From positions 2,830,703 through 2,894,702 of the forward strand of contig CP070777.1 of NCBI GenBank assembly GCA_020346225.1: a stretch of 64,000 bases of DNA. Reading direction: 5' to 3'. Under the pieces are notes generated by a model. The model saw nothing but the letters and a program-made list of their open reading frames with translations. It had not been told where the DNA came from and did no database searches. The translations under genes and the position numbers were made by a program. Origin of the DNA: Candidatus Zixiibacteriota bacterium. GTDB taxonomy: Bacteria > Zixibacteria > MSB-5A5 > GN15 > FEB-12. Shown piece by piece: positions 10,101-29,099 of the stretch (positions are counted from its first letter, which is position 1; every line of letters starts with the position of its first letter).

Positions 10101-10369
10101 TTATGACCACCTTCGCCACTGTCTTCGGAATGCTGCCTTTGGCCCTCGGTATCGGTCCCGGCGCCGAATTGAGGGCACCCATGGCCCGTGCCGCTATCGG
10201 CGGCATCATCTCCTCGACTCTGCTGACGCTGGTGGTCGTGCCGATCGTGTATACTTTGATTGACGATTTCGTAGGGCTGTTCAGAAGACTGAGGAAAGTG
10301 GAGACCGCCGTGAGAGACGGCACCGCCCTGCAAGAGCAAGTTGATGAGCAATTTAATCGCGCCAAGTAA
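7175..10369 (+). CDS. RND-family efflux pump, inner-membrane permease (HAE1/AcrB type)
   Basis: A 1064-aa proton-driven multidrug pump. It starts with KRPVFATMMIGALLVIGAFS, the first membrane helix of the family, and has twelve membrane helices in two halves, each with a large periplasmic porter loop. The proton-relay aspartate pair of helix 4 is present as GILIDDAIVVIENI near residues 398-399. The second half contains GIVMLMGLVTKNAILLIDF, also conserved. It would trimerise and pair with the adaptor and TolC protein encoded just upstream. The 3' end overlaps the bshC start by 26 nt, which ties the bacillithiol genes to this transcript. Substrate range cannot be read from sequence. Confidence 0.95.
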   Translation: MKISEVSIKRPVFATMMIGALLVIGAFSYYGLPVELMPNVDFPFVIVQTVYPGASAESVETDVTKNIEEVINQISGVRHIQSVSREGFSQVFVEFQLEKEGAEAAQDVREKVATIRGTLPEDIEDPIITQFDNDAFPILSVAITGSRSLRDVTQLAKDRIKPRLEIIPGIGNVEIVGGYEREILIGLDPQKMESFGIAIDDVTEAVAAANMEVPGGRIDESRREYLVRLMGRLGRVADFDNIIVKNVAGTPVYLSQIAAVSDTIAEQRSLSRYNGTPSIGLSIIKQSGANVVEMAEQARQTIADLRAELPPDIKMDIVSDNSTFITDSIHEILFNIRVGTLLAVLVIFLFLLDFRPTIITGLSIPISIIATFTLLKFLGFTINIMTLLGLSLSVGILIDDAIVVIENIYRHLSEGKSPWKAAFEGTKEIGLAVMATTFTIMVVFLPVAFMEGIVGRFFYQFGMTVAFAVLISLLVAFSLTPMLSSRWLKKNHNAESQSADPARKPSGLRSFWQRILGILGLWNRTFDATKPSYERLLAFSLRHRWLVMLVAVAAFAGALVLVPLLGVEFFPRTDEGQMIVTVDTPPGTTLQETAQRMTLIEDIVREMPEVTSSLVTIGAGNSAVTQGSILFLLTDASERELSALQVIDSVRGLLTTVPGIKFSVGTEEHRGGGGKPIVLSIRGDDRDELTRLAHRVQDIAGQVYGAIDVDNTLEEGKPEVQIDVDRKAADDLGLSLAVIPLTVRHLVEGDVVTRYKDGDEEYDVRVKLDQRFRSSADQIGRILVKSDKKIPGQETFLVPLDRVARLNKQTSIGEFRRFDRQSEVRVNANVLSGSFAGNVTTSIMEEVSQVPLPPGYSITPTGEQEWMVESFINIFKALALAIIFIYLVLASQYESFWDPLSIMFSLPLSLVGAILGLLLTGSSISIMSLIGIVMLMGLVTKNAILLIDFVKQQRRKGVPRFDAVLIAGPIRLRPILMTTFATVFGMLPLALGIGPGAELRAPMARAAIGGIISSTLLTLVVVPIVYTLIDDFVGLFRRLRKVETAVRDGTALQEQVDEQFNRAK

Positions 10370-11966
10370 GGCCCTGGGATACTCGAGCATCTTTCTGGAT
10401 TTCCTCAGCGGCTCCGGGGTGGCAAAAGATTTTTATCCGGCGACGGACCCCGCCGACGTCGCCCGTCGGCTCGATGCCGTTGCGTACCGGCGCGACCATA
10501 TAGTCGCCATCCTCGAAAAACAAAATAGTCTCTACGGCGCTTCCGATAAAACGCTCGCCAACATCGAAAAACTCAAAGACCCCCTTGCCGTTTGTCTCTT
10601 TGCCGGTCAGCAGGCCATTCTCTTCGGCGGGCCCATGCTCATTATGTACAAGGCTCTCTCCCTGGTAAAGGCGGCACATGCTTACACCGAGAAGCTGGGC
10701 CGACCGGTTATCCCGGTCTTCTGGATTGCCGCTGACGACCATGATTTCGAGGAAGTCAACCATACCTATGTTCTGAGTCGGTCGTCCGAGCTGACGAAGA
10801 TTTGTTATGAAACTCCTCCGACTGTGGAACTGCCTATTTCTGAAGTACGTCTTTCCGATTCCACCGGCCTGGACAAGGCCAGAAACACTCTGCAGGCGGC
10901 CCTGGGGCAAACCGACTTCACTTCCGATCTCTATGCGCTGATTGAACGTTGCTATACTCCCGAGGATACTTTCGTCACCGCCTTCGGCAAATTCATGGCC
11001 GCTCTTACCGCCGACCTCGGCCTGGTGTTCTTCTCGCCGGGTGACCCCGACGCCAAGCGCCTCGCCGCGCCCCTTTTCAAAGACATCGTAAGCCGCGGCC
11101 ATGACCTTCAGCAAATGCTGAGTGAAACCAATCTGAAAATCAGGGACTCCGGCTATCACATCCAGGTGGAGAAGGCCGAAGATGCCACCCATCTGTTCTA
11201 CAATCTCGACGGCCGCAGTCCCGTTCACCGGCAGGGCGACGGCTATGTAGCGGGGGAGGCCCGGCTGAGCCGAGATGATCTGATGGCACGCATCGATGAA
11301 CATCCGGAGCGCTTCTCGCCCGATGTCATGACCCGTCCTGTCATGCAGTCGTATCTCTTTCCCGTCGTCAGCCAGAAAGGCGGCGCCGCCGAGATAGCCT
11401 ACCTGGCCCAGGTCCATCGCATCTTCGATCTCTTCGGCTTGGTCACGCCGTACTATCGCTCCCGGCCGACCATGACGGTGATAGAGAAACGCTTCGAAAG
11501 ACTCATGACCGAGCACGCTATAACGTTTGAACAACTGACGGGCGATATTGAACAGGTCATCAACCGCGTTCTGACCGAATCGTTTCCGGATGACATCGAA
11601 GATCGCTTCGGCGAGTTTCGTGCTGAGCTCACCGATCACTTCGCGCGGCTCACCACGCGAGCGCTCGAGTTCGACCCGTCGCTGTCGGACCTGGCCGAAA
11701 AAACCAAAGGTAAGATAGATTTTGTCGTGAAGGCGCTCGAGAACAAGGTGTTCTCGTCTCACAAGAAGAAATCCAGCGAAACGCGCGAGCGCATTTACCG
11801 TCTCCACGCCGCCCTGTATCCCAATCGCAACTTCCAGGAGCGCTCGCTGAACATCTCGTATTTCCTTTCCAAGTACGGCCCGGGCTTCATACCTTACCTT
11901 TTTGAGGCCATGGATTGTCGTGAGAAAGCGCACCAGCTTATCTATCTCTCGGAGTACGAAGTGTAA
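10344..11966 (+). CDS. bshC: Bacillithiol biosynthesis cysteine-adding enzyme BshC
   Basis: A 540-aa protein matching BshC along its length, including CLFAGQQAILFGGPMLIMYK and VIPVFWIAADDHDFEEVNHT near the N-terminus, a central nucleotide-binding-like core, and a long C-terminal coiled coil (residues about 430-490) that mediates dimerisation in known BshC. BshC adds L-cysteine to glucosaminyl-malate, the last step of bacillithiol synthesis. The ATG at 10344 lies inside the RND gene; a TTG directly before it is the alternative start. The next gene, bshA, begins immediately after its stop. Length matches family members of about 540 aa. Confidence 0.93.
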   Translation: MSNLIAPSKALGYSSIFLDFLSGSGVAKDFYPATDPADVARRLDAVAYRRDHIVAILEKQNSLYGASDKTLANIEKLKDPLAVCLFAGQQAILFGGPMLIMYKALSLVKAAHAYTEKLGRPVIPVFWIAADDHDFEEVNHTYVLSRSSELTKICYETPPTVELPISEVRLSDSTGLDKARNTLQAALGQTDFTSDLYALIERCYTPEDTFVTAFGKFMAALTADLGLVFFSPGDPDAKRLAAPLFKDIVSRGHDLQQMLSETNLKIRDSGYHIQVEKAEDATHLFYNLDGRSPVHRQGDGYVAGEARLSRDDLMARIDEHPERFSPDVMTRPVMQSYLFPVVSQKGGAAEIAYLAQVHRIFDLFGLVTPYYRSRPTMTVIEKRFERLMTEHAITFEQLTGDIEQVINRVLTESFPDDIEDRFGEFRAELTDHFARLTTRALEFDPSLSDLAEKTKGKIDFVVKALENKVFSSHKKKSSETRERIYRLHAALYPNRNFQERSLNISYFLSKYGPGFIPYLFEAMDCREKAHQLIYLSEYEV

Positions 11967-13097
11967 ATGGTTATCGGTATCACATGCTACCCGGTCGCGG
12001 GCGGTTCCGGCATCGTCGCCACCGAACTGGGCCAGCAACTGGCCCTGAGGGGTCATCAGGTACACTTCATCGCCTATGCCCTCCCGTTTCGCCTTGACCG
12101 CTACCAGGCCAACGTCATGTATCACGGCGTGGAAACCACCGCTTACCCGCTGTTCAAGTACCCGCCGTATACGCTGACCCTTGCCGCCCGTATGGCCGAA
12201 GTCGTGCGCAGCTACGATTTGGACCTGCTGCACGTACACTACGCCATCCCTCATGCCGCCTGCGCTTACCTCGCCCGGCAGCTTCTTGCGGCCGACGGTG
12301 CCCCCTGTCCGAAAGTGATCACGACCCTTCACGGCACCGATATCACTCTGGTCGGTTCCGACCCTTCCTATTACGACATCACCCGCTTCTCCATTCTCTC
12401 CTCTGACGGCATCACCGCCGTGTCGAAGTATCTGGCCGATGAAACGAGCCAGGTTTTCAGGGTCGACAAGGAAATTCGCGTCATTCACAATTTCGTCGAT
12501 AACCATCGCTTCCGCCCGACCGAAAAGCAGTGCGAGCGCACCGAATTCGTCGCTCATGATGAGTTCCTGATCGCCCATGTTTCCAATTTCCGCCCCGTCA
12601 AACGCACCCTCGACGTCATCGACGTATTCGAGCGCATCAGCGCCGAGCTGCCCGCGAAACTGTTGCTCATCGGGGAAGGGCCCGACACCATTCTGGCTCG
12701 CCGGCAGATAAACAAGAAGCACCTCAGCGACCGGGTCATGTTCCTCGGCAACCAGAACCGCATCGAGGCCGTCCTGCCCTGCGCCGACCTGTTCCTGCTG
12801 CCCTCCGAAGAGGAGTCTTTCGGCCTGGCCGCACTGGAGGCCCTTGCCTGCGGCGTGCCGGTGATCGGCACCTCCGGCACCGGCCTGGTGGAAGTTGTCG
12901 ATGATTTCAAGAACGGCTTTCTCCTGCCTATCGGGGATACCGCGGCCATGGCCCGCGCCGGAATCTCGCTCCTGCGCGACAAGGGTCGCCTCGCCGAGTT
13001 CAAGGCACAGGCCTCGCGCTCGGCGCTCGAGAAATTCGGGGCCGACAGGATAGTCGGCCAGTATGAACAGTATTACCGGGAGGTACTCGGTGGTTAA
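11967..13097 (+). CDS. bshA: N-acetyl-alpha-D-glucosaminyl L-malate synthase BshA
   Basis: A 376-aa GT4-family retaining glycosyltransferase with the BshA N-terminus IGITCYPVAGGSGIVATELG and the VHFIAYALPFRL segment. The C-terminal domain has LLPSEEESFGLAALEALACGVPVIG, the sugar-nucleotide binding EX7E motif of GT4 enzymes. It transfers GlcNAc from UDP-GlcNAc to L-malate, the first step of bacillithiol synthesis. The ATG abuts the bshC stop with no gap, and its own end overlaps the bshB1 start. The gene order C-A-B1 places all three pathway steps in one transcript. Confidence 0.95.
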   Translation: MVIGITCYPVAGGSGIVATELGQQLALRGHQVHFIAYALPFRLDRYQANVMYHGVETTAYPLFKYPPYTLTLAARMAEVVRSYDLDLLHVHYAIPHAACAYLARQLLAADGAPCPKVITTLHGTDITLVGSDPSYYDITRFSILSSDGITAVSKYLADETSQVFRVDKEIRVIHNFVDNHRFRPTEKQCERTEFVAHDEFLIAHVSNFRPVKRTLDVIDVFERISAELPAKLLLIGEGPDTILARRQINKKHLSDRVMFLGNQNRIEAVLPCADLFLLPSEEESFGLAALEALACGVPVIGTSGTGLVEVVDDFKNGFLLPIGDTAAMARAGISLLRDKGRLAEFKAQASRSALEKFGADRIVGQYEQYYREVLGG

Positions 13098-13812
13098 GCC
13101 GGCTGAACTCGATATCCTGGCCGTGGCCGCGCATCCCGATGACATCGAGATCACCTGCGGCGGCTTGCTGATCAAAATGGTAAAGAAGGGTTACGCCGTC
13201 GGTGCCCTGGATCTCACCCGGGGCGAGATGGGTTCCTACGGCGATGAAGACGACCGTGACGCCGAAGCCGACGCCGCCGCCCGGCTCATGGGCCTGGCGT
13301 ACCGTGGTAACCTGGCGCTAAAGGACGCCGGTGTCGAAGTTAGCCAGGAAAACAAGCTCAAACTGGCCGCTGTCATCCGCGAAACCAGACCTCAGCTTGT
13401 CGTTTTGCCTCACTGGGAGCAGCGCCACCCCGACCACCGCGCCTGCCACCGGCTCGGGTACGACGCCTGCTTTCTGTCCGGTTTGAAGAAAATCGACATC
13501 GAAGGTGAGCCCCACCGGCCGCGCAAGATCATCTATGTGACGTATTTCCGCAATGCCGACTACTCTTTCCTCGTCGATATCTCCGACGAGTTCGAGCAGA
13601 AATGCGCCGCCGTGGCGGCCTATAAGTCACAGTTTGACGACCCCGAAACCGCCCGGAGAATCTTCCAGCCCGGTATCGATATTTTCGAGTTCATGCGCGT
13701 CCGTGCCCGTCAACTGGGGCAGCTGGCCGGCGTTCAGTACGCCGAGGCTTATACCGTCAAGGAACATATTCTTATCGACGACCCTCTGCTCATGCCGATA
13801 AGCTCGATGTAA
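13090..13812 (+). CDS. bshB1: Bacillithiol biosynthesis deacetylase BshB1
   Basis: A 240-aa PIG-L/LmbE-family zinc deacetylase. The metal-binding motif AAHPDDIE is near residues 13-20 and the third ligand is in RHPDHRACH near residue 117. DLTRGEMGSYGDEDDRDAEA is the segment characteristic of the BshB1 subgroup. It removes the acetyl group from GlcNAc-malate to give GlcN-malate, the BshC substrate. GTG 13090 was chosen because GGGAGG sits 7 nt upstream; an in-frame ATG at 13063 inside bshA has no ribosome site. It is the last gene of the run; a gap with a separate -10 box follows. Confidence 0.93.
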   Translation: MVKPAELDILAVAAHPDDIEITCGGLLIKMVKKGYAVGALDLTRGEMGSYGDEDDRDAEADAAARLMGLAYRGNLALKDAGVEVSQENKLKLAAVIRETRPQLVVLPHWEQRHPDHRACHRLGYDACFLSGLKKIDIEGEPHRPRKIIYVTYFRNADYSFLVDISDEFEQKCAAVAAYKSQFDDPETARRIFQPGIDIFEFMRVRARQLGQLAGVQYAEAYTVKEHILIDDPLLMPISSM

Positions 13813-15058: not shown

Positions 15059-15087
15059 TTGCGCCTGCCGCTAGCCGGTTTTATATT
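15059..15087 (+). promoter_or_regulatory. Promoter of the tRNA-Sec gene
   Basis: TTGCGC at 15059-15064, a 17-nt spacer and TATATT at 15082-15087. Counting seven bases from the last -10 base puts +1 at 15094, exactly the first base of the mature tRNA, so the primary transcript would have no 5' leader. Confidence 0.65.
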
Positions 15088-15093
15088 GGACGC

Positions 15094-15187
15094 GGAAGCG
15101 GATGTCGTCTGGTGGCGATCCCGGCCTTCAAAGCCGTGCGGGGGGCAAAGGTCTTGTCCCCGGTGGGTTCGATTCCCACCCCTTCCG
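15094..15187 (+). tRNA. selC: Selenocysteine tRNA (anticodon TCA)
   Basis: The anticodon loop is CTTCAAA with anticodon TCA, which reads UGA. The D arm is a 6-bp stem (GTCGTC/GGCGAT, with G-U pairs) closing a 4-nt TGGT loop, a hallmark of bacterial tRNA-Sec. The long variable arm is an 8-bp stem (GGGGGCAA/TTGTCCCC) with a 5-nt loop. The T arm is GTGGG-TTCGATT-CCCAC. The acceptor pairs GGAAGCGG with CCCTTCC, followed by discriminator G at 15187; CCA is not encoded. The 3' acceptor strand is one base shorter than the 5' strand, leaving C15099 bulged or mispaired, so acceptor plus T stem is 12 bp rather than the usual 13. selA and selB are 10 kb downstream. Confidence 0.9.
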
Positions 15188-24898: not shown

Positions 24899-25837
24899 AT
24901 GCGGTCGTCTCCTGCCTCATTCGTTATCCTTATCCTTGTTGGCTCTTGCGTTTGCTGCGGACAGGCGCCCCGCGTTCAGCCGCCGCTTTTCGACGGTAAC
25001 CGGGCCTTTACCTACCTGCGCACCCAGGTAGAGTTCGGTCCCCGCGTGCCCGGTTCCGACGCTTCCGCCCGCTGCCGCGATTATATCTATGACCACTTCC
25101 GCGGCCTCGGTCTGGTCGTTGATTCGCAGGTCTTCGTCTTTCGTGACCCCTATTCCGACGCCGATGTTCGCATGGTCAACGTTGTTGGCTCATATGACCC
25201 CGCCAATGTATCCGCGGCCGCCCGCATCGTGCTCATGGCCCACTATGACAGCCGTCCCCGGGCCGAATATGCCCGCGACCCGAACCTGGCCGGTGAACCG
25301 ATCGACGGCGCCAATGACGGCGCCTCCGGCACCGCGGTGCTGATGGAAATGGCCAACCTCATCGCCCGGGACGCCCCGCCCGGCGCGGTCGATCTGGTGC
25401 TCGTCGATGGAGAGGACTGGGGGGTGACGGGAGACCACGAGCGCTATATGCTCGGCTCCCGGCACTTCGCCCGTCAGGGCATCAGGGGCAAATACCGCTT
25501 CGGCATCGTCGTGGATATGGTCGGCGATATCGACCAGCGCATCCTGCGTGAAGGGTACTCCGAGATCTACGGCAAATCGCTCAATGATATGGTCTGGCGG
25601 TCCGCCCGCGAACTCGGCATCGACGCTTTCTATGATTCCATCGGCGACTCGGTGCTCGACGACCATCTCTCGCTCAATGTCGGCGGTGTGCCCAGCATCA
25701 ACATTATCGATTTCGACTATCCATACTGGCACACCGAATTTGATACTCCCGACAAGTGCTCCGGCCTGTCGCTGGCCAATGTCGGGCGCGTGCTGACCGA
25801 AATAATTTATAACCCGTCGCTATGGCCCGAAAAGTAA
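24899..25837 (+). CDS. M28-family zinc enzyme, glutaminyl-peptide cyclotransferase-like
   Basis: A 312-aa exported protein with a short signal peptide ending at GSCVCCGQ, which may be a lipoprotein signal. The M28 metal ligands appear in order: LMAHYDSRP (His), GANDGASG (bridging Asp), LVDGEDWG (Glu pair), VVDMVGD (Asp) and YWHTEFDTPDK (His). The overall length and single catalytic domain fit glutaminyl cyclases of the M28 fold as well as aminopeptidases. In Bacteroidota such cyclases cap N-terminal Gln of exported proteins. The gene lies directly after the sprA homologue and overlaps selA by 16 nt. Cyclase versus peptidase cannot be settled by eye. Confidence 0.8.
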   Translation: MRSSPASFVILILVGSCVCCGQAPRVQPPLFDGNRAFTYLRTQVEFGPRVPGSDASARCRDYIYDHFRGLGLVVDSQVFVFRDPYSDADVRMVNVVGSYDPANVSAAARIVLMAHYDSRPRAEYARDPNLAGEPIDGANDGASGTAVLMEMANLIARDAPPGAVDLVLVDGEDWGVTGDHERYMLGSRHFARQGIRGKYRFGIVVDMVGDIDQRILREGYSEIYGKSLNDMVWRSARELGIDAFYDSIGDSVLDDHLSLNVGGVPSINIIDFDYPYWHTEFDTPDKCSGLSLANVGRVLTEIIYNPSLWPEK

Positions 25838-27198
25838 TTAAACAACTGCGCGATTTTCCGTCCGTGGAACAGGTCCTGCAACAGCGGCGCCTGGCGTCCG
25901 CTGTGTCGTCCGTTCCGCGACCGCTCGCGGCCGGGATCGTCAAGCAGGTCATCTCGGAATACAAAGAGACCTTCCGAAAAAAAACCGGGCCCGTTACGCA
26001 CGAGGAAATCATGGGGGAGATCACCCGGCGGCTGGCCGCCTGCAAAAGCGGCGAGATCGGTAAAGTCATCAATGCTACCGGTATCGTCGTTCACACCAAC
26101 CTCGGGCGGGCGCCATTATCGGAAGCTCTGTTCGATGCCGTCAGGAAAACCGTCACCGGCTACGGCAACATCGAATTCGATATCCCGACCGGGTCGCGCG
26201 GCCGTCGCGGTCAGGCCTGTGAGAAATACCTCGCCCTGCTGTCCGGTGCCGCGGCCGGCACCGTCGTCAATAATTGCGCCGCCGCCCTGATGATAACTCT
26301 CAACACTCTTGCCAACCGCAGGAAAGTCATCATTTCGCGCGGCGAGCTGGTGCAGATCGGCGGCGGTTTTCGTATCCCCGACATTCTCAAAAAATCCGGG
26401 GCCCGCCTGTGCGAGGTCGGCACCACCAACATCACCACCGTGGCCGACTACGAAAACAGTATCGACCGCGCCACCGGTCTCATTCTCAGGGTGCACCAGA
26501 GCAACTTCATCCAGCGCGGCTTCACCCAGCAGATTGACCTGGCGCCGCTGGTTGCCCTGGGCCGCAAGCACAATTTGCCGGTCGTCAATGACCTCGGCAG
26601 CGGCGTCTTTATTCCCACCCGGCCGCTGTTGGGCTACCGCGAGCCGACCGTCCAGCAGTCCGTCCGTGACGGCGCCGACGTTACCTGTTTTTCGGGTGAC
26701 AAGATGCTCGGCGGCTGTCAGGCCGGGCTGATCGTCGGCTCCACCGAAACCATCGACAGAATCAAGCGCAACCCCCTCTTTCGCACCGTCCGGGTGGACA
26801 AAATCGTTTTCTCGATCCTGGAAAAGATGCTCGGTTATTATCTGGACGGTCGCTGGCAGTCCGAGATCAAGCTCTGGGCGATTCTTGCCGTCACCGAATC
26901 CGAACTCTACCGGCGCGGCAAACAGCTCGTCAAGAACCTGGGTAATCCCTCCGGCCTATCGGTCGAGGCCACCCGCGCCTACGTCGGCGGCGGGGCCCTG
27001 CCCGAAGCCTCCATTCCGTCGGTCGGCATCGTCTTCTCGGCCGCTTACAAAGCCGCCGCTCTTATGAAGAAGCTCCGCGCCATGCCGGTGCCCGTAATCG
27101 GCCGCGTCGAGGACGACCGCCTCGTTCTCGACCTCAAAGCCGTCGACGAAACCGACCTTGTTTACCTTCAGCGAACCATCAAAAAAATCCTGACCTGA
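25822..27198 (+). CDS. selA: L-seryl-tRNA(Sec) selenium transferase SelA
   Basis: A 458-aa fold-type I PLP enzyme. The N-terminal tRNA-binding part begins [12 protein letters not shown], typical of SelA. The catalytic lysine lies in [14 protein letters not shown] at residue 294, and [20 protein letters not shown] and [10 protein letters not shown] are family signatures. It converts Ser-tRNA(Sec) to Sec-tRNA(Sec) with selenophosphate and works as a homodecamer in known cases. The start overlaps the M28 gene; selB follows after 11 nt. The tRNA substrate is encoded at 15.1 kb. selD is not in the window. Confidence 0.96.
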
Positions 27199-27209: not shown

Positions 27210-29099
27210 ATGATAGTAATTGGCACGGCCGGCCATATCGACCACGGCAAATCATCCATTGTCAAGAGGCTCACCGGAACCGACCCCGACCGCCTCCCCG
27301 AAGAACAGACCCGGGGTATGACCATTGACCTCGGCTTCGCTTTCTATCAGACGCCCGACAGCGACACCATCGCCTTTGTCGATGTTCCCGGCCATGAGCG
27401 TTTCGTCAAGAACATGGTGGCCGGTGTCGGCGCTATCGACGCCGTTATGCTCGTTGTCGCCGCCGACGACGGCTGGATGCCGCAGAGCGAAGAACATTTT
27501 CAGATTGTCCGCCTCCTCGGCGTCAGGCGGGGCTTCATCGTCATCAACAAGGCCGACCTGGCCGAGCCCGACTGGCTGGCCCTGCTCAGGGATGAGATCA
27601 GGGAAAAAACCACGCGTACTTTCCTGGCCGACGCCCCCGTCTTCACCGTTTCTGCCGAGACGGGCGCCGGTTTCGACGAACTAACCGCGCATCTCGACAC
27701 CCTTACCAGTGTCATCGAGCCGCGCCGCGATATCGGTAAGGCCCGTCTCTACAATGACCGCTCCTTCGTCCGGCCCGGAATTGGAGGTGTCGTCACCGGC
27801 ACCCTGCGCGGCGGCAGTCTCTCGGTCGGCCAGTCCGTTTCCGTCTGGCCGTCGCTGCGGACGGCCAAAATCCGCTCGCTGCATTCCAACAACCGCGACG
27901 TCGTCACCGCTGTCCCCGGTCAGCGTACCGCCGTTTCCTTCACCGGACTGGACAAGGAGCTGCTTGTCCGCGGTGGTGTTGTCTCGGCCCGGAGCGATTT
28001 GGCCATCTTCAGGGAAAACCCGATCCTGGCTCTGTCGGTAGAGTTGCTCGGCGACGCCGCTGTTTCCATCACCGACCGTCGGCGCGTTCTCATAATACTG
28101 GGTACCACCGAAACCGAAGGCGAGATCCGCCTCTACCACTCGCGCGAAATCAAGCCGGGGGAGAGGGGCGTCGCCTTCTTCAAGCCTGATCGACCACTTT
28201 ACGGTCTGGTGGCCGATCACTTCATCCTGCGTCTGCCGACGCCCATGGTGACCATCGGCGGCGGCCGGCTTCTCGACCACCTGCCTTATCTGCCCCGGAA
28301 GAAGAACCTCGAGCACTACCGTTACCTCGAAATGCGCTGCCCTCCGACGCTGGCCAACTTGGTCGTCTCCGAACTTCACAAGCAGCCCATCGTTTCGCTA
28401 AAGCACCTTCTGGTCGAATCCGATTTCTCGGCGGCCGATATTGAAGCCGCCGTCAAAAAGGCCTGGCGGGACAAAACCTTCGGGCTGTTCGAGGGCTGCG
28501 TTTACCACGTCAGGTATCTTGCCGAGGCGGCACAGCGGTTCGAAAAAAAGTTGACCGCTTACCTCGAAGAACACTCGCACCTGACCGGCCTTTCCCTTGA
28601 ACAGATTGCCCGCGTCACCGGCTATCCCGCCTCGCAGGCGGCGCTTATCGTCAGGTACCTGGTTTCCGAAGGTGTTATGCAAAAAGTGAAAGACCAGTAC
28701 AGCTTTGCCGGCCGCGGCTTGGCTCTCAAGGGACCCATCAAGGCCGCCCACGACGACATCATCGCGGCTCTCACCGAAAACCGCTTCGACCCCCCCACCC
28801 TTTCGTCCCTGGCCGCTCGCGGAAAAATCCATAAAGATGCCATCAAGGTCATCCTCGATACCGGTCGCGGCTATAAGTGCGGTTCCGATTTTATCTTCTC
28901 GTCCGAAGCTTGGCAGGAAATCATCGCTTTCATAAAGGAAAAGATATCGCGCGACAACAAACTCATCGTGGCCGACCTGCGCGACAAGTTCGGCATCTCC
29001 CGCAAGTTCTGCATTCCCATCCTCGAAGAAACCGACCGCATCAGGCTCACCCGGCGCGACGGTGACATCCGCGTGAAAGGGGAGAGCTTTGAAAGCTAA
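27210..29099 (+). CDS. selB: Selenocysteine-specific elongation factor SelB
   Basis: A 629-aa translational GTPase. G1 is [12 protein letters not shown] at residues 5-16, with the [11 protein letters not shown] effector motif, [12 protein letters not shown] (G3) and INKADL (G4). Three beta-barrel domains follow, and the C-terminal third (residues about 370-629) is four winged-helix units that bind the SECIS hairpin in bacterial SelB (for example [22 protein letters not shown]). It delivers Sec-tRNA(Sec) to UGA codons. It is in an operon with selA, and its last 11 nt overlap the following amidohydrolase. Length is normal. Confidence 0.96.

What the first reader, a model, noticed from the sequence alone, without database searches (positions are those of the whole stretch)
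15094..15187. tRNA-Sec is one base short in its 3' acceptor strand (12-bp acceptor plus T arm)
The 5' acceptor GGAAGCGG would pair with CCGCTTCC, but the sequence has CCCTTCC, so C15099 is bulged or faces C and the stacked arm is 12 bp rather than the 13 (8+5) typical of bacterial tRNA-Sec. The D arm, variable arm and anticodon are otherwise classic. tRNAs with 8/4-type 12-bp arms have been reported, so this may be a genuine variant affecting SelA and SelB recognition.
Basis: partly seen in the sequence, partly recalled or inferred. Interest (0 to 1): 0.5.

Follow-up and report, generated by a model that had tools for sequence, protein, structure and literature searches.

The report
Bulged, one-pair-short selenocysteine tRNA
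The selenocysteine tRNA of this bacterium really does lack one base in its acceptor stem, but its relatives share the same short, bulged stem, so it is an inherited variant of a kind already described rather than an error.

Summary
The tRNA-Sec at 15094-15187 (+) has an 8-nt 5' acceptor strand (GGAAGCGG) and a 7-nt 3' strand (CCCTTCC), so C15099 has no partner. It is not an assembly error. In the window's phylum (Zixibacteria by record titles) 105 of 132 genomes gave a tRNA-Sec at E<=1e-10. All 105 have the 7-nt 3' strand and a 5-bp T stem; 104 have GGAAG-N-GG. The bulged base is C 50, A 44, U 10, G 0. selA and selB lie in the window and the genome's selD has one in-frame TGA, so the gene is probably functional. 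Bacterial 7/5 tRNA-Sec with a bulge at 3a, 4a or 5a was described in 2017 (PMC5330540), so this is a new member of a known kind, here found throughout a phylum. A bulge kept unpaired as a kink for SelB/EF-Tu discrimination is possible, but untested.

The parts
15094..15187 (+). tRNA-Sec gene (selC), 94 nt with discriminator G15187; CCA is not encoded (CTT follows G15187)
15094..15101 (+). 5' acceptor strand GGAAGCGG (8 nt)
   Evidence: GGAAG[CAT]GG in 104 of 105 phylum genes
15099..15099 (+). bulged nucleotide (position 5a); C, A or U, never G, in 104 genes
15180..15186 (+). 3' acceptor strand CCCTTCC (7 nt)
   Evidence: 7 nt in 105 of 105 (CCCTTCC 99, TCCTTCC 6)
15163..15179 (+). T arm, 5-bp stem GTGGG/CCCAC, loop TTCGATT
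   Evidence: (5 of 5 pairs in 105 of 105)
15104..15119 (+). D arm with 6-bp stem and 4-nt loop, the feature that SelA reads in known systems
   Evidence: role from PMC7609411 section 4
15121..15138 (+). anticodon arm; anticodon TCA at 15128-15130; U15137 bulged if C28 pairs with G45 (like position 43a)
   Evidence: the same 28:45-only pairing in 48 of 105 genes
15141..15161 (+). long variable arm
   Evidence: predicted fold
15082..15087 (+). possible -10 box TATATT (with TTGCGC at 15059-15064, 17-nt spacer), read by eye
   Evidence: the consensus scan found no promoter at its threshold; TANNNT within 15 nt upstream in 88 of 105 genes (no chance control)
25822..27198 (+). selA, selenocysteine synthase
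   Evidence: TIGR00474, 503.1 bits, cut-off 267.9; ORF
27210..29099 (+). selB, Sec-specific elongation factor
   Evidence: TIGR00475, 295.2 bits, cut-off 242.25; ORF

Best explanation
This is the working tRNA-Sec of a Zixibacteria bacterium, of the known 7/5 class: a 7-bp acceptor stem plus a 5-bp T stem, with the extra 5' base (5a) kept as a single-nucleotide bulge because its 3' partner (67a in bacterial numbering; recalled) is absent. Shown: the missing base, its conservation across the phylum, and the presence of selA, selB and a selD with an in-frame TGA. Inferred: SerRS charges it through G73 and the long variable arm, SelA recognises the 6-bp D arm, and SelB rather than EF-Tu takes it, perhaps because the bulge distorts the acceptor arm and stands in for the 13th pair.
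For: 105 of 105 tRNA-Sec genes found at E<=1e-10 in 132 phylum genomes have a 7-nt 3' strand, a 5-bp T stem and G73; 104 of 105 have GGAAG[CAT]GG. On 42 of the 93 distinct sequences the 7/5 acceptor pairs form in 100% of cells, while the sixth pair of an 8/4 fold forms in 0 of 42. The bulge base is C 50, A 44, T 10, G 0 of 104, with roughly 9 to 28 changes on the family/genus hierarchy. In a model minihelix the two pairs after the bulge have probability 1.0 with A, C or U, but 0.52 and 0.67 with G. selA and selB occur in the window. selD carries one in-frame TGA, read as ...SCAG-TGA-AAKLAP.... 100 of 104 genes, the window's included, have none of the three E. coli SelB/anti-EF-Tu pairs named in PMC9976931 (position matching by recalled numbering), so if such a signal is needed here something else must give it.
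Against: The acceptor arm is almost invariant and gives no compensatory evidence: helix 1 has 0 pairs changed on both sides. Folding energy does not separate the 7/5 form (-27.5) from a 6/6 isomer (-27.6), and the full-length minimum-energy fold with CCA added pairs the 5' strand differently. Lack of G is not unique to the bulge: the unpaired base 27 is also never G (C 80, T 25 of 105), so it may reflect other limits. One gene (G103) has a disrupted 5' strand. 26 of 132 genomes gave no tRNA-Sec even with a phylum-specific model; of the 13 of these among the 61 genomes of the relatives search, 11 have selA and 10 have both selA and selB over the cut-off. Most of those are fragmented assemblies, but G031 is one contig. 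No binding or expression data exist here.
Confidence: 0.87

Rival explanations
1. The missing base is a sequencing or assembly error in one genome.
For: The window genome is one assembly; no reads were available here.
Against: The same 7-nt strand is in 105 of 105 phylum tRNA-Sec genes, and the same signature turns up in Spirochaetes metagenome genomes and in named Photobacterium strains.
Confidence: 0.01
2. The arm is 8/4 with a C6xC mismatch.
For: 8/4 tRNA-Sec and 8/4 or 9/3 allo-tRNAs exist (PMC7609411 passages).
Against: The sixth pair forms in 0 of 42 sequences; the 8/4 form is 3.5 kcal/mol worse (-24.0 against -27.5).
Confidence: 0.03
3. 6/6 isomer: the G before the T stem pairs with C15180, leaving C6 and G8 unpaired.
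For: Equal energy; that G is invariant in 105 of 105.
Against: E. coli selC has a G in the same place although its acceptor 3' strand begins with G (sequence printed), so the G needs no such pair.
Confidence: 0.08
4. The bulge is a neutral relic: the 3' partner was lost once and the machinery tolerates 12 bp plus a bulge.
For: 7/5 forms occur in several phyla (PMC5330540). Another unpaired position, base 27, is also never G, so lack of G need not mean a selected kink.
Against: The bulge base changes often (about 9 to 28 times) yet is G in 0 of 104; the crude chance under equal rates is 0.026 for 9 changes and 1e-5 for 28.
Confidence: 0.45

Closest known systems
Bacterial 7/5 tRNA-Sec with a bulged acceptor stem, type 5a (Santesmasses et al. 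2017, PMC5330540; section 10 and passages with the legend of S2 Fig read, figures not seen)
   Same: 12-bp arm, 7 residues between T stem and G73, bulge at 5a, G73, often a bulge at 43a. The exact GGAAG-N-GG signature also occurs in Spirochaetes and Photobacterium, lineages that the paper lists or names
   Different: That section does not list Zixibacteria and says the form was mixed within its lineages; here it is in 105 of 105 genes found
Epsilonproteobacterial 7/5 tRNA-Sec (PMC4607533, passages read)
   Same: 7-bp acceptor stem in a selenocysteine tRNA
   Different: Different lineage; the bulge position was not compared
Canonical 8/5 tRNA-Sec (E. coli selC, L252)
   Same: 6-bp D stem, long variable arm, TCA anticodon, G73, GGAAG start
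   Different: E. coli has 8 full acceptor pairs (13-bp arm); here 7 pairs and a bulge
[quoted passage not shown] seen through PMC7609411 passages)
   Same: 12-bp arms in Sec-like tRNAs
   Different: Not 7/5; other anticodons or identity elements

Membership tests
tRNA-Sec (RF01852) | Covariance-model score above the gathering cut-off | tested here: met
   68.4 bits against 47
tRNA-Sec (RF01852) | UCA anticodon, 6-bp D stem, long variable arm, G73 | tested here: met
tRNA-Sec (RF01852) | selA, selB and a gene with in-frame UGA in the same genome | tested here: met
Canonical bacterial 8/5 tRNA-Sec | 13-bp acceptor plus T arm | tested here: not met
   12 bp plus a bulge
Bacterial 7/5 tRNA-Sec with bulge (PMC5330540) | 7 residues between T stem and G73 | tested here: met
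   window, and 105 of 105 phylum genes
Bacterial 7/5 tRNA-Sec with bulge (PMC5330540) | Bulged nucleotide in the 5' acceptor strand at 3a, 4a or 5a | tested here: met
   after G5, i.e. 5a; a 6/6 isomer of equal energy is not excluded
Bacterial 7/5 tRNA-Sec with bulge (PMC5330540) | Charging with Ser, conversion by SelA, delivery by SelB | not testable with these tools
   needs biochemistry
8/4 tRNA-Sec | 8 acceptor and 4 T-stem pairs | tested here: not met
   sixth pair 0 of 42

The most novel reading that the evidence does not exclude
The 5a bulge is a selected recognition feature, not a relic. Across the phylum its base may be A, C or U but is kept from being G, because G would let the strand slip into an 8/4-like helix. 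The kink at 5a would replace the 13th base pair, and the missing E. coli anti-EF-Tu pairs, as the signal that sends this tRNA to SelB. That would parallel the non-Watson-Crick 5a:67b pair that eukaryotic tRNA-Sec needs (PMC7609411 section 4).
Probability: 0.25. Interest if true: 0.55.

Novelty: new member of a known kind. Interest (0 to 1): 0.3.

Why it matters
Textbook bacterial tRNA-Sec is told from other tRNAs by a 13-bp arm. A phylum whose known tRNA-Sec genes keep 12 bp and a bulge offers a natural test of what SelA, SelB and EF-Tu really read, and programs that assume 13 bp can misplace G73 in such genes (PMC5330540 section 10 reports this for its own tool).

Tried and rejected
Assembly error: rejected, the feature is in 105 of 105 phylum genes. 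8/4 fold: rejected. Promoter and terminator scan: nothing at threshold. Single-sequence folding of the whole tRNA: not decisive. SelA tree of 27 rows (25 records with a SelA match over 400 aa, the window and E. coli): seven Photobacterium SelAs and one Aliivibrio SelA share a branch with ten Spirochaetes SelAs (99/99), away from E. coli SelA, which hints at transfer of the operon. But E. coli is a long branch placed among Zixibacteria and is the only 8/5 control, so I draw no conclusion on one or several origins. G107 and a second G096 copy are not among the 105. The pair counts used 42 of 93 distinct sequences, G103 and G107 not among them. The composition of position 45 (G 55 of 93), which I first took as a control for G at unpaired sites, is not a clean one: that base can pair with base 28 in 71 of 105 genes; it is not used. 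Two other family searches for selenoproteins in the own genome (PF02662, PF00384) showed no in-frame stop, so selD is the only TGA-containing gene I saw. The search of other Spirochaetes genomes for 8/5 and 7/5 forms could not be run. Two papers of 2016 and 2017 on variant tRNA-Sec are not held; their content is known only through reviews or recall. That the form is not in print for Zixibacteria rests on (12 of 3,412 listed; 10 of 13 listed; 16 of 18 listed; 22 of 24 listed) only; some searches gave one paper that, by its passages, names the phylum (PMC8318568), and those passages do not concern its tRNA-Sec.

Full report
What is there. The gene at 15094-15187 on the plus strand is a tRNA-Sec: ARAGORN gives tRNA-SeC with anticodon TCA and Rfam RF01852 gives 68.4 bits against a cut-off of 47. 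Its genome shows no other match over that cut-off. The 5' acceptor strand is GGAAGCGG (8 nt), the T stem GTGGG/CCCAC (5 bp), the 3' acceptor strand CCCTTCC (7 nt), and the discriminator is G15187. C15099 has no partner.

Is it an error? No. The phylum held 132 genomes, of which 105 gave a match at E<=1e-10. I read all 105 (loci; printed, one more located; tallied). All 105 have a 7-nt 3' strand (CCCTTCC 99, TCCTTCC 6), five T-stem pairs and G73. 104 of 105 have GGAAG-N-GG; the exception, G103, has a disrupted 5' strand. A model built from 42 of these sequences found 106 of 132; the extra one, G107, is odd and is told under noticed items.

Which fold? With a 7/5 fold and a bulge after G5, every acceptor pair forms in all 42 aligned sequences, G-U included. 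In an 8/4 register the sixth pair forms in none of the 42 and the energy is 3.5 kcal/mol worse. A 6/6 isomer is as stable on paper and cannot be excluded. The acceptor is too conserved to show compensatory changes.

The bulge base. It is C in 50, A in 44, T in 10 and G in 0 of 104 genes. On the family/genus hierarchy, without a real tree, this needs about 9 changes if polytomies are resolved favourably and 28 if they are not. Under equal rates the chance of never reaching G is 0.026 or 1e-5. In a model minihelix A, C or U leaves the bulge fixed, whereas G lets about half of the molecules slip into an 8/4-like register. Against this, the unpaired base 27 is also never G (C 80, T 25 of 105). Selection to keep the bulge unpaired is therefore suggested, not shown.

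Is it functional? selA (503.1 bits) and selB (295.2 bits) lie in the same window, about 10.6 kb downstream. Among the 61 genomes of the relatives search (the window's own included), selA is over the cut-off in 55, selB in 53 and tRNA-Sec in 48. Of the 13 of these without a match to the phylum model, 11 have selA and 10 have both selA and selB over the cut-off; most are in hundreds of contigs, but G031 is one contig and G048 has 40. The genome's selD has one in-frame TGA at ...SCAG-TGA-AAKLAP..., the usual Sec site of SelD (recalled). selA was found on 29 of the 80 fetched named records, in each within about 1.4 kb of selC: six titled Zixibacteria, one 'bacterium', the rest Spirochaetes, Photobacterium and Aliivibrio.

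How it probably works. In known systems SerRS reads G73 and the variable arm, SelA reads the 6-bp D arm, and SelB binding and EF-Tu rejection depend on the long acceptor stem (PMC7609411 section 4, read), and in E. coli on three pairs C7-G66, G49.U65 and C50-G64 (PMC9976931, passages). Here the features for SerRS and SelA are present. Of the three pairs, 100 of 104 genes have none (position matching by recalled numbering; other 8/5 tRNA-Sec genes were not tested for them). The bulge at 5a is the best candidate for the missing signal; eukaryotic tRNA-Sec needs a non-Watson-Crick pair at 5a:67b (PMC7609411 section 4). This last step is inference.

Known or new. Bacterial tRNA-Sec with a 12-bp arm, most with a bulge in the acceptor stem (3a, 4a or 5a), was described in Gammaproteobacteria, Clostridiales, Spirochaetes and others (PMC5330540 section 10, and passages; its figures were not seen), and a 7/5 form in Epsilonproteobacteria (PMC4607533, passages). 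Zixibacteria are not named in that section. In the held library no paper on tRNA-Sec of that phylum came up (limits of the listings are given under Tried and rejected), and a 2026 review shows no passage on the form (PMC13188914, passages). So this is a new member of a known kind, found throughout a phylum.

Noticed in passing
L287 (G107:C55:4452-4545, minus strand): A tRNA-Sec-like gene about 2 kb upstream of selA, with a selD-like gene in between (as in its relative G106), but with anticodon TTA, a changed acceptor (position 6 can pair) and a damaged D stem (by eye). The selD-like gene still has TGA at its Sec site, so it is not a simple switch to UAA; paralogue, decaying gene or assembly problem.
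   Followed up: partly
L286 (G096:C141:3354-3446, minus strand): A second Sec-like tRNA with a GCA (Cys) anticodon, a T after the acceptor, a 6-bp D stem and a long variable arm (by eye), resembling selC* tRNA-Cys; the review passages read do not list Zixibacteria among its hosts. ARAGORN does not call it, and it lies on a 4.5-kb contig of a metagenome genome, so contamination is possible.
   Followed up: partly
G031 and G048: Genomes with selA and selB but no tRNA-Sec found by RF01852 at 1e-10, by the phylum model (best weak hits 38.1 and 33 bits, not inspected), nor by ARAGORN in 39 kb and 20 kb around selA.
   Followed up: partly
10341-13812: Bacillithiol genes bshC, bshA and bshB1 lie in a row upstream of selC, followed by a CDF-family cation transporter; recG follows selC.
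   Followed up: no
L150, L152, L158 and other Photobacterium loci: Photobacterium SelA groups with Spirochaetes SelA (99/99) rather than with E. coli SelA, hinting at transfer of a bulged selC-selA-selB operon.
   Followed up: partly
L126 (G103:C8): The only one of 105 phylum tRNA-Sec genes with a disrupted 5' acceptor strand; decay or local assembly error.
   Followed up: no
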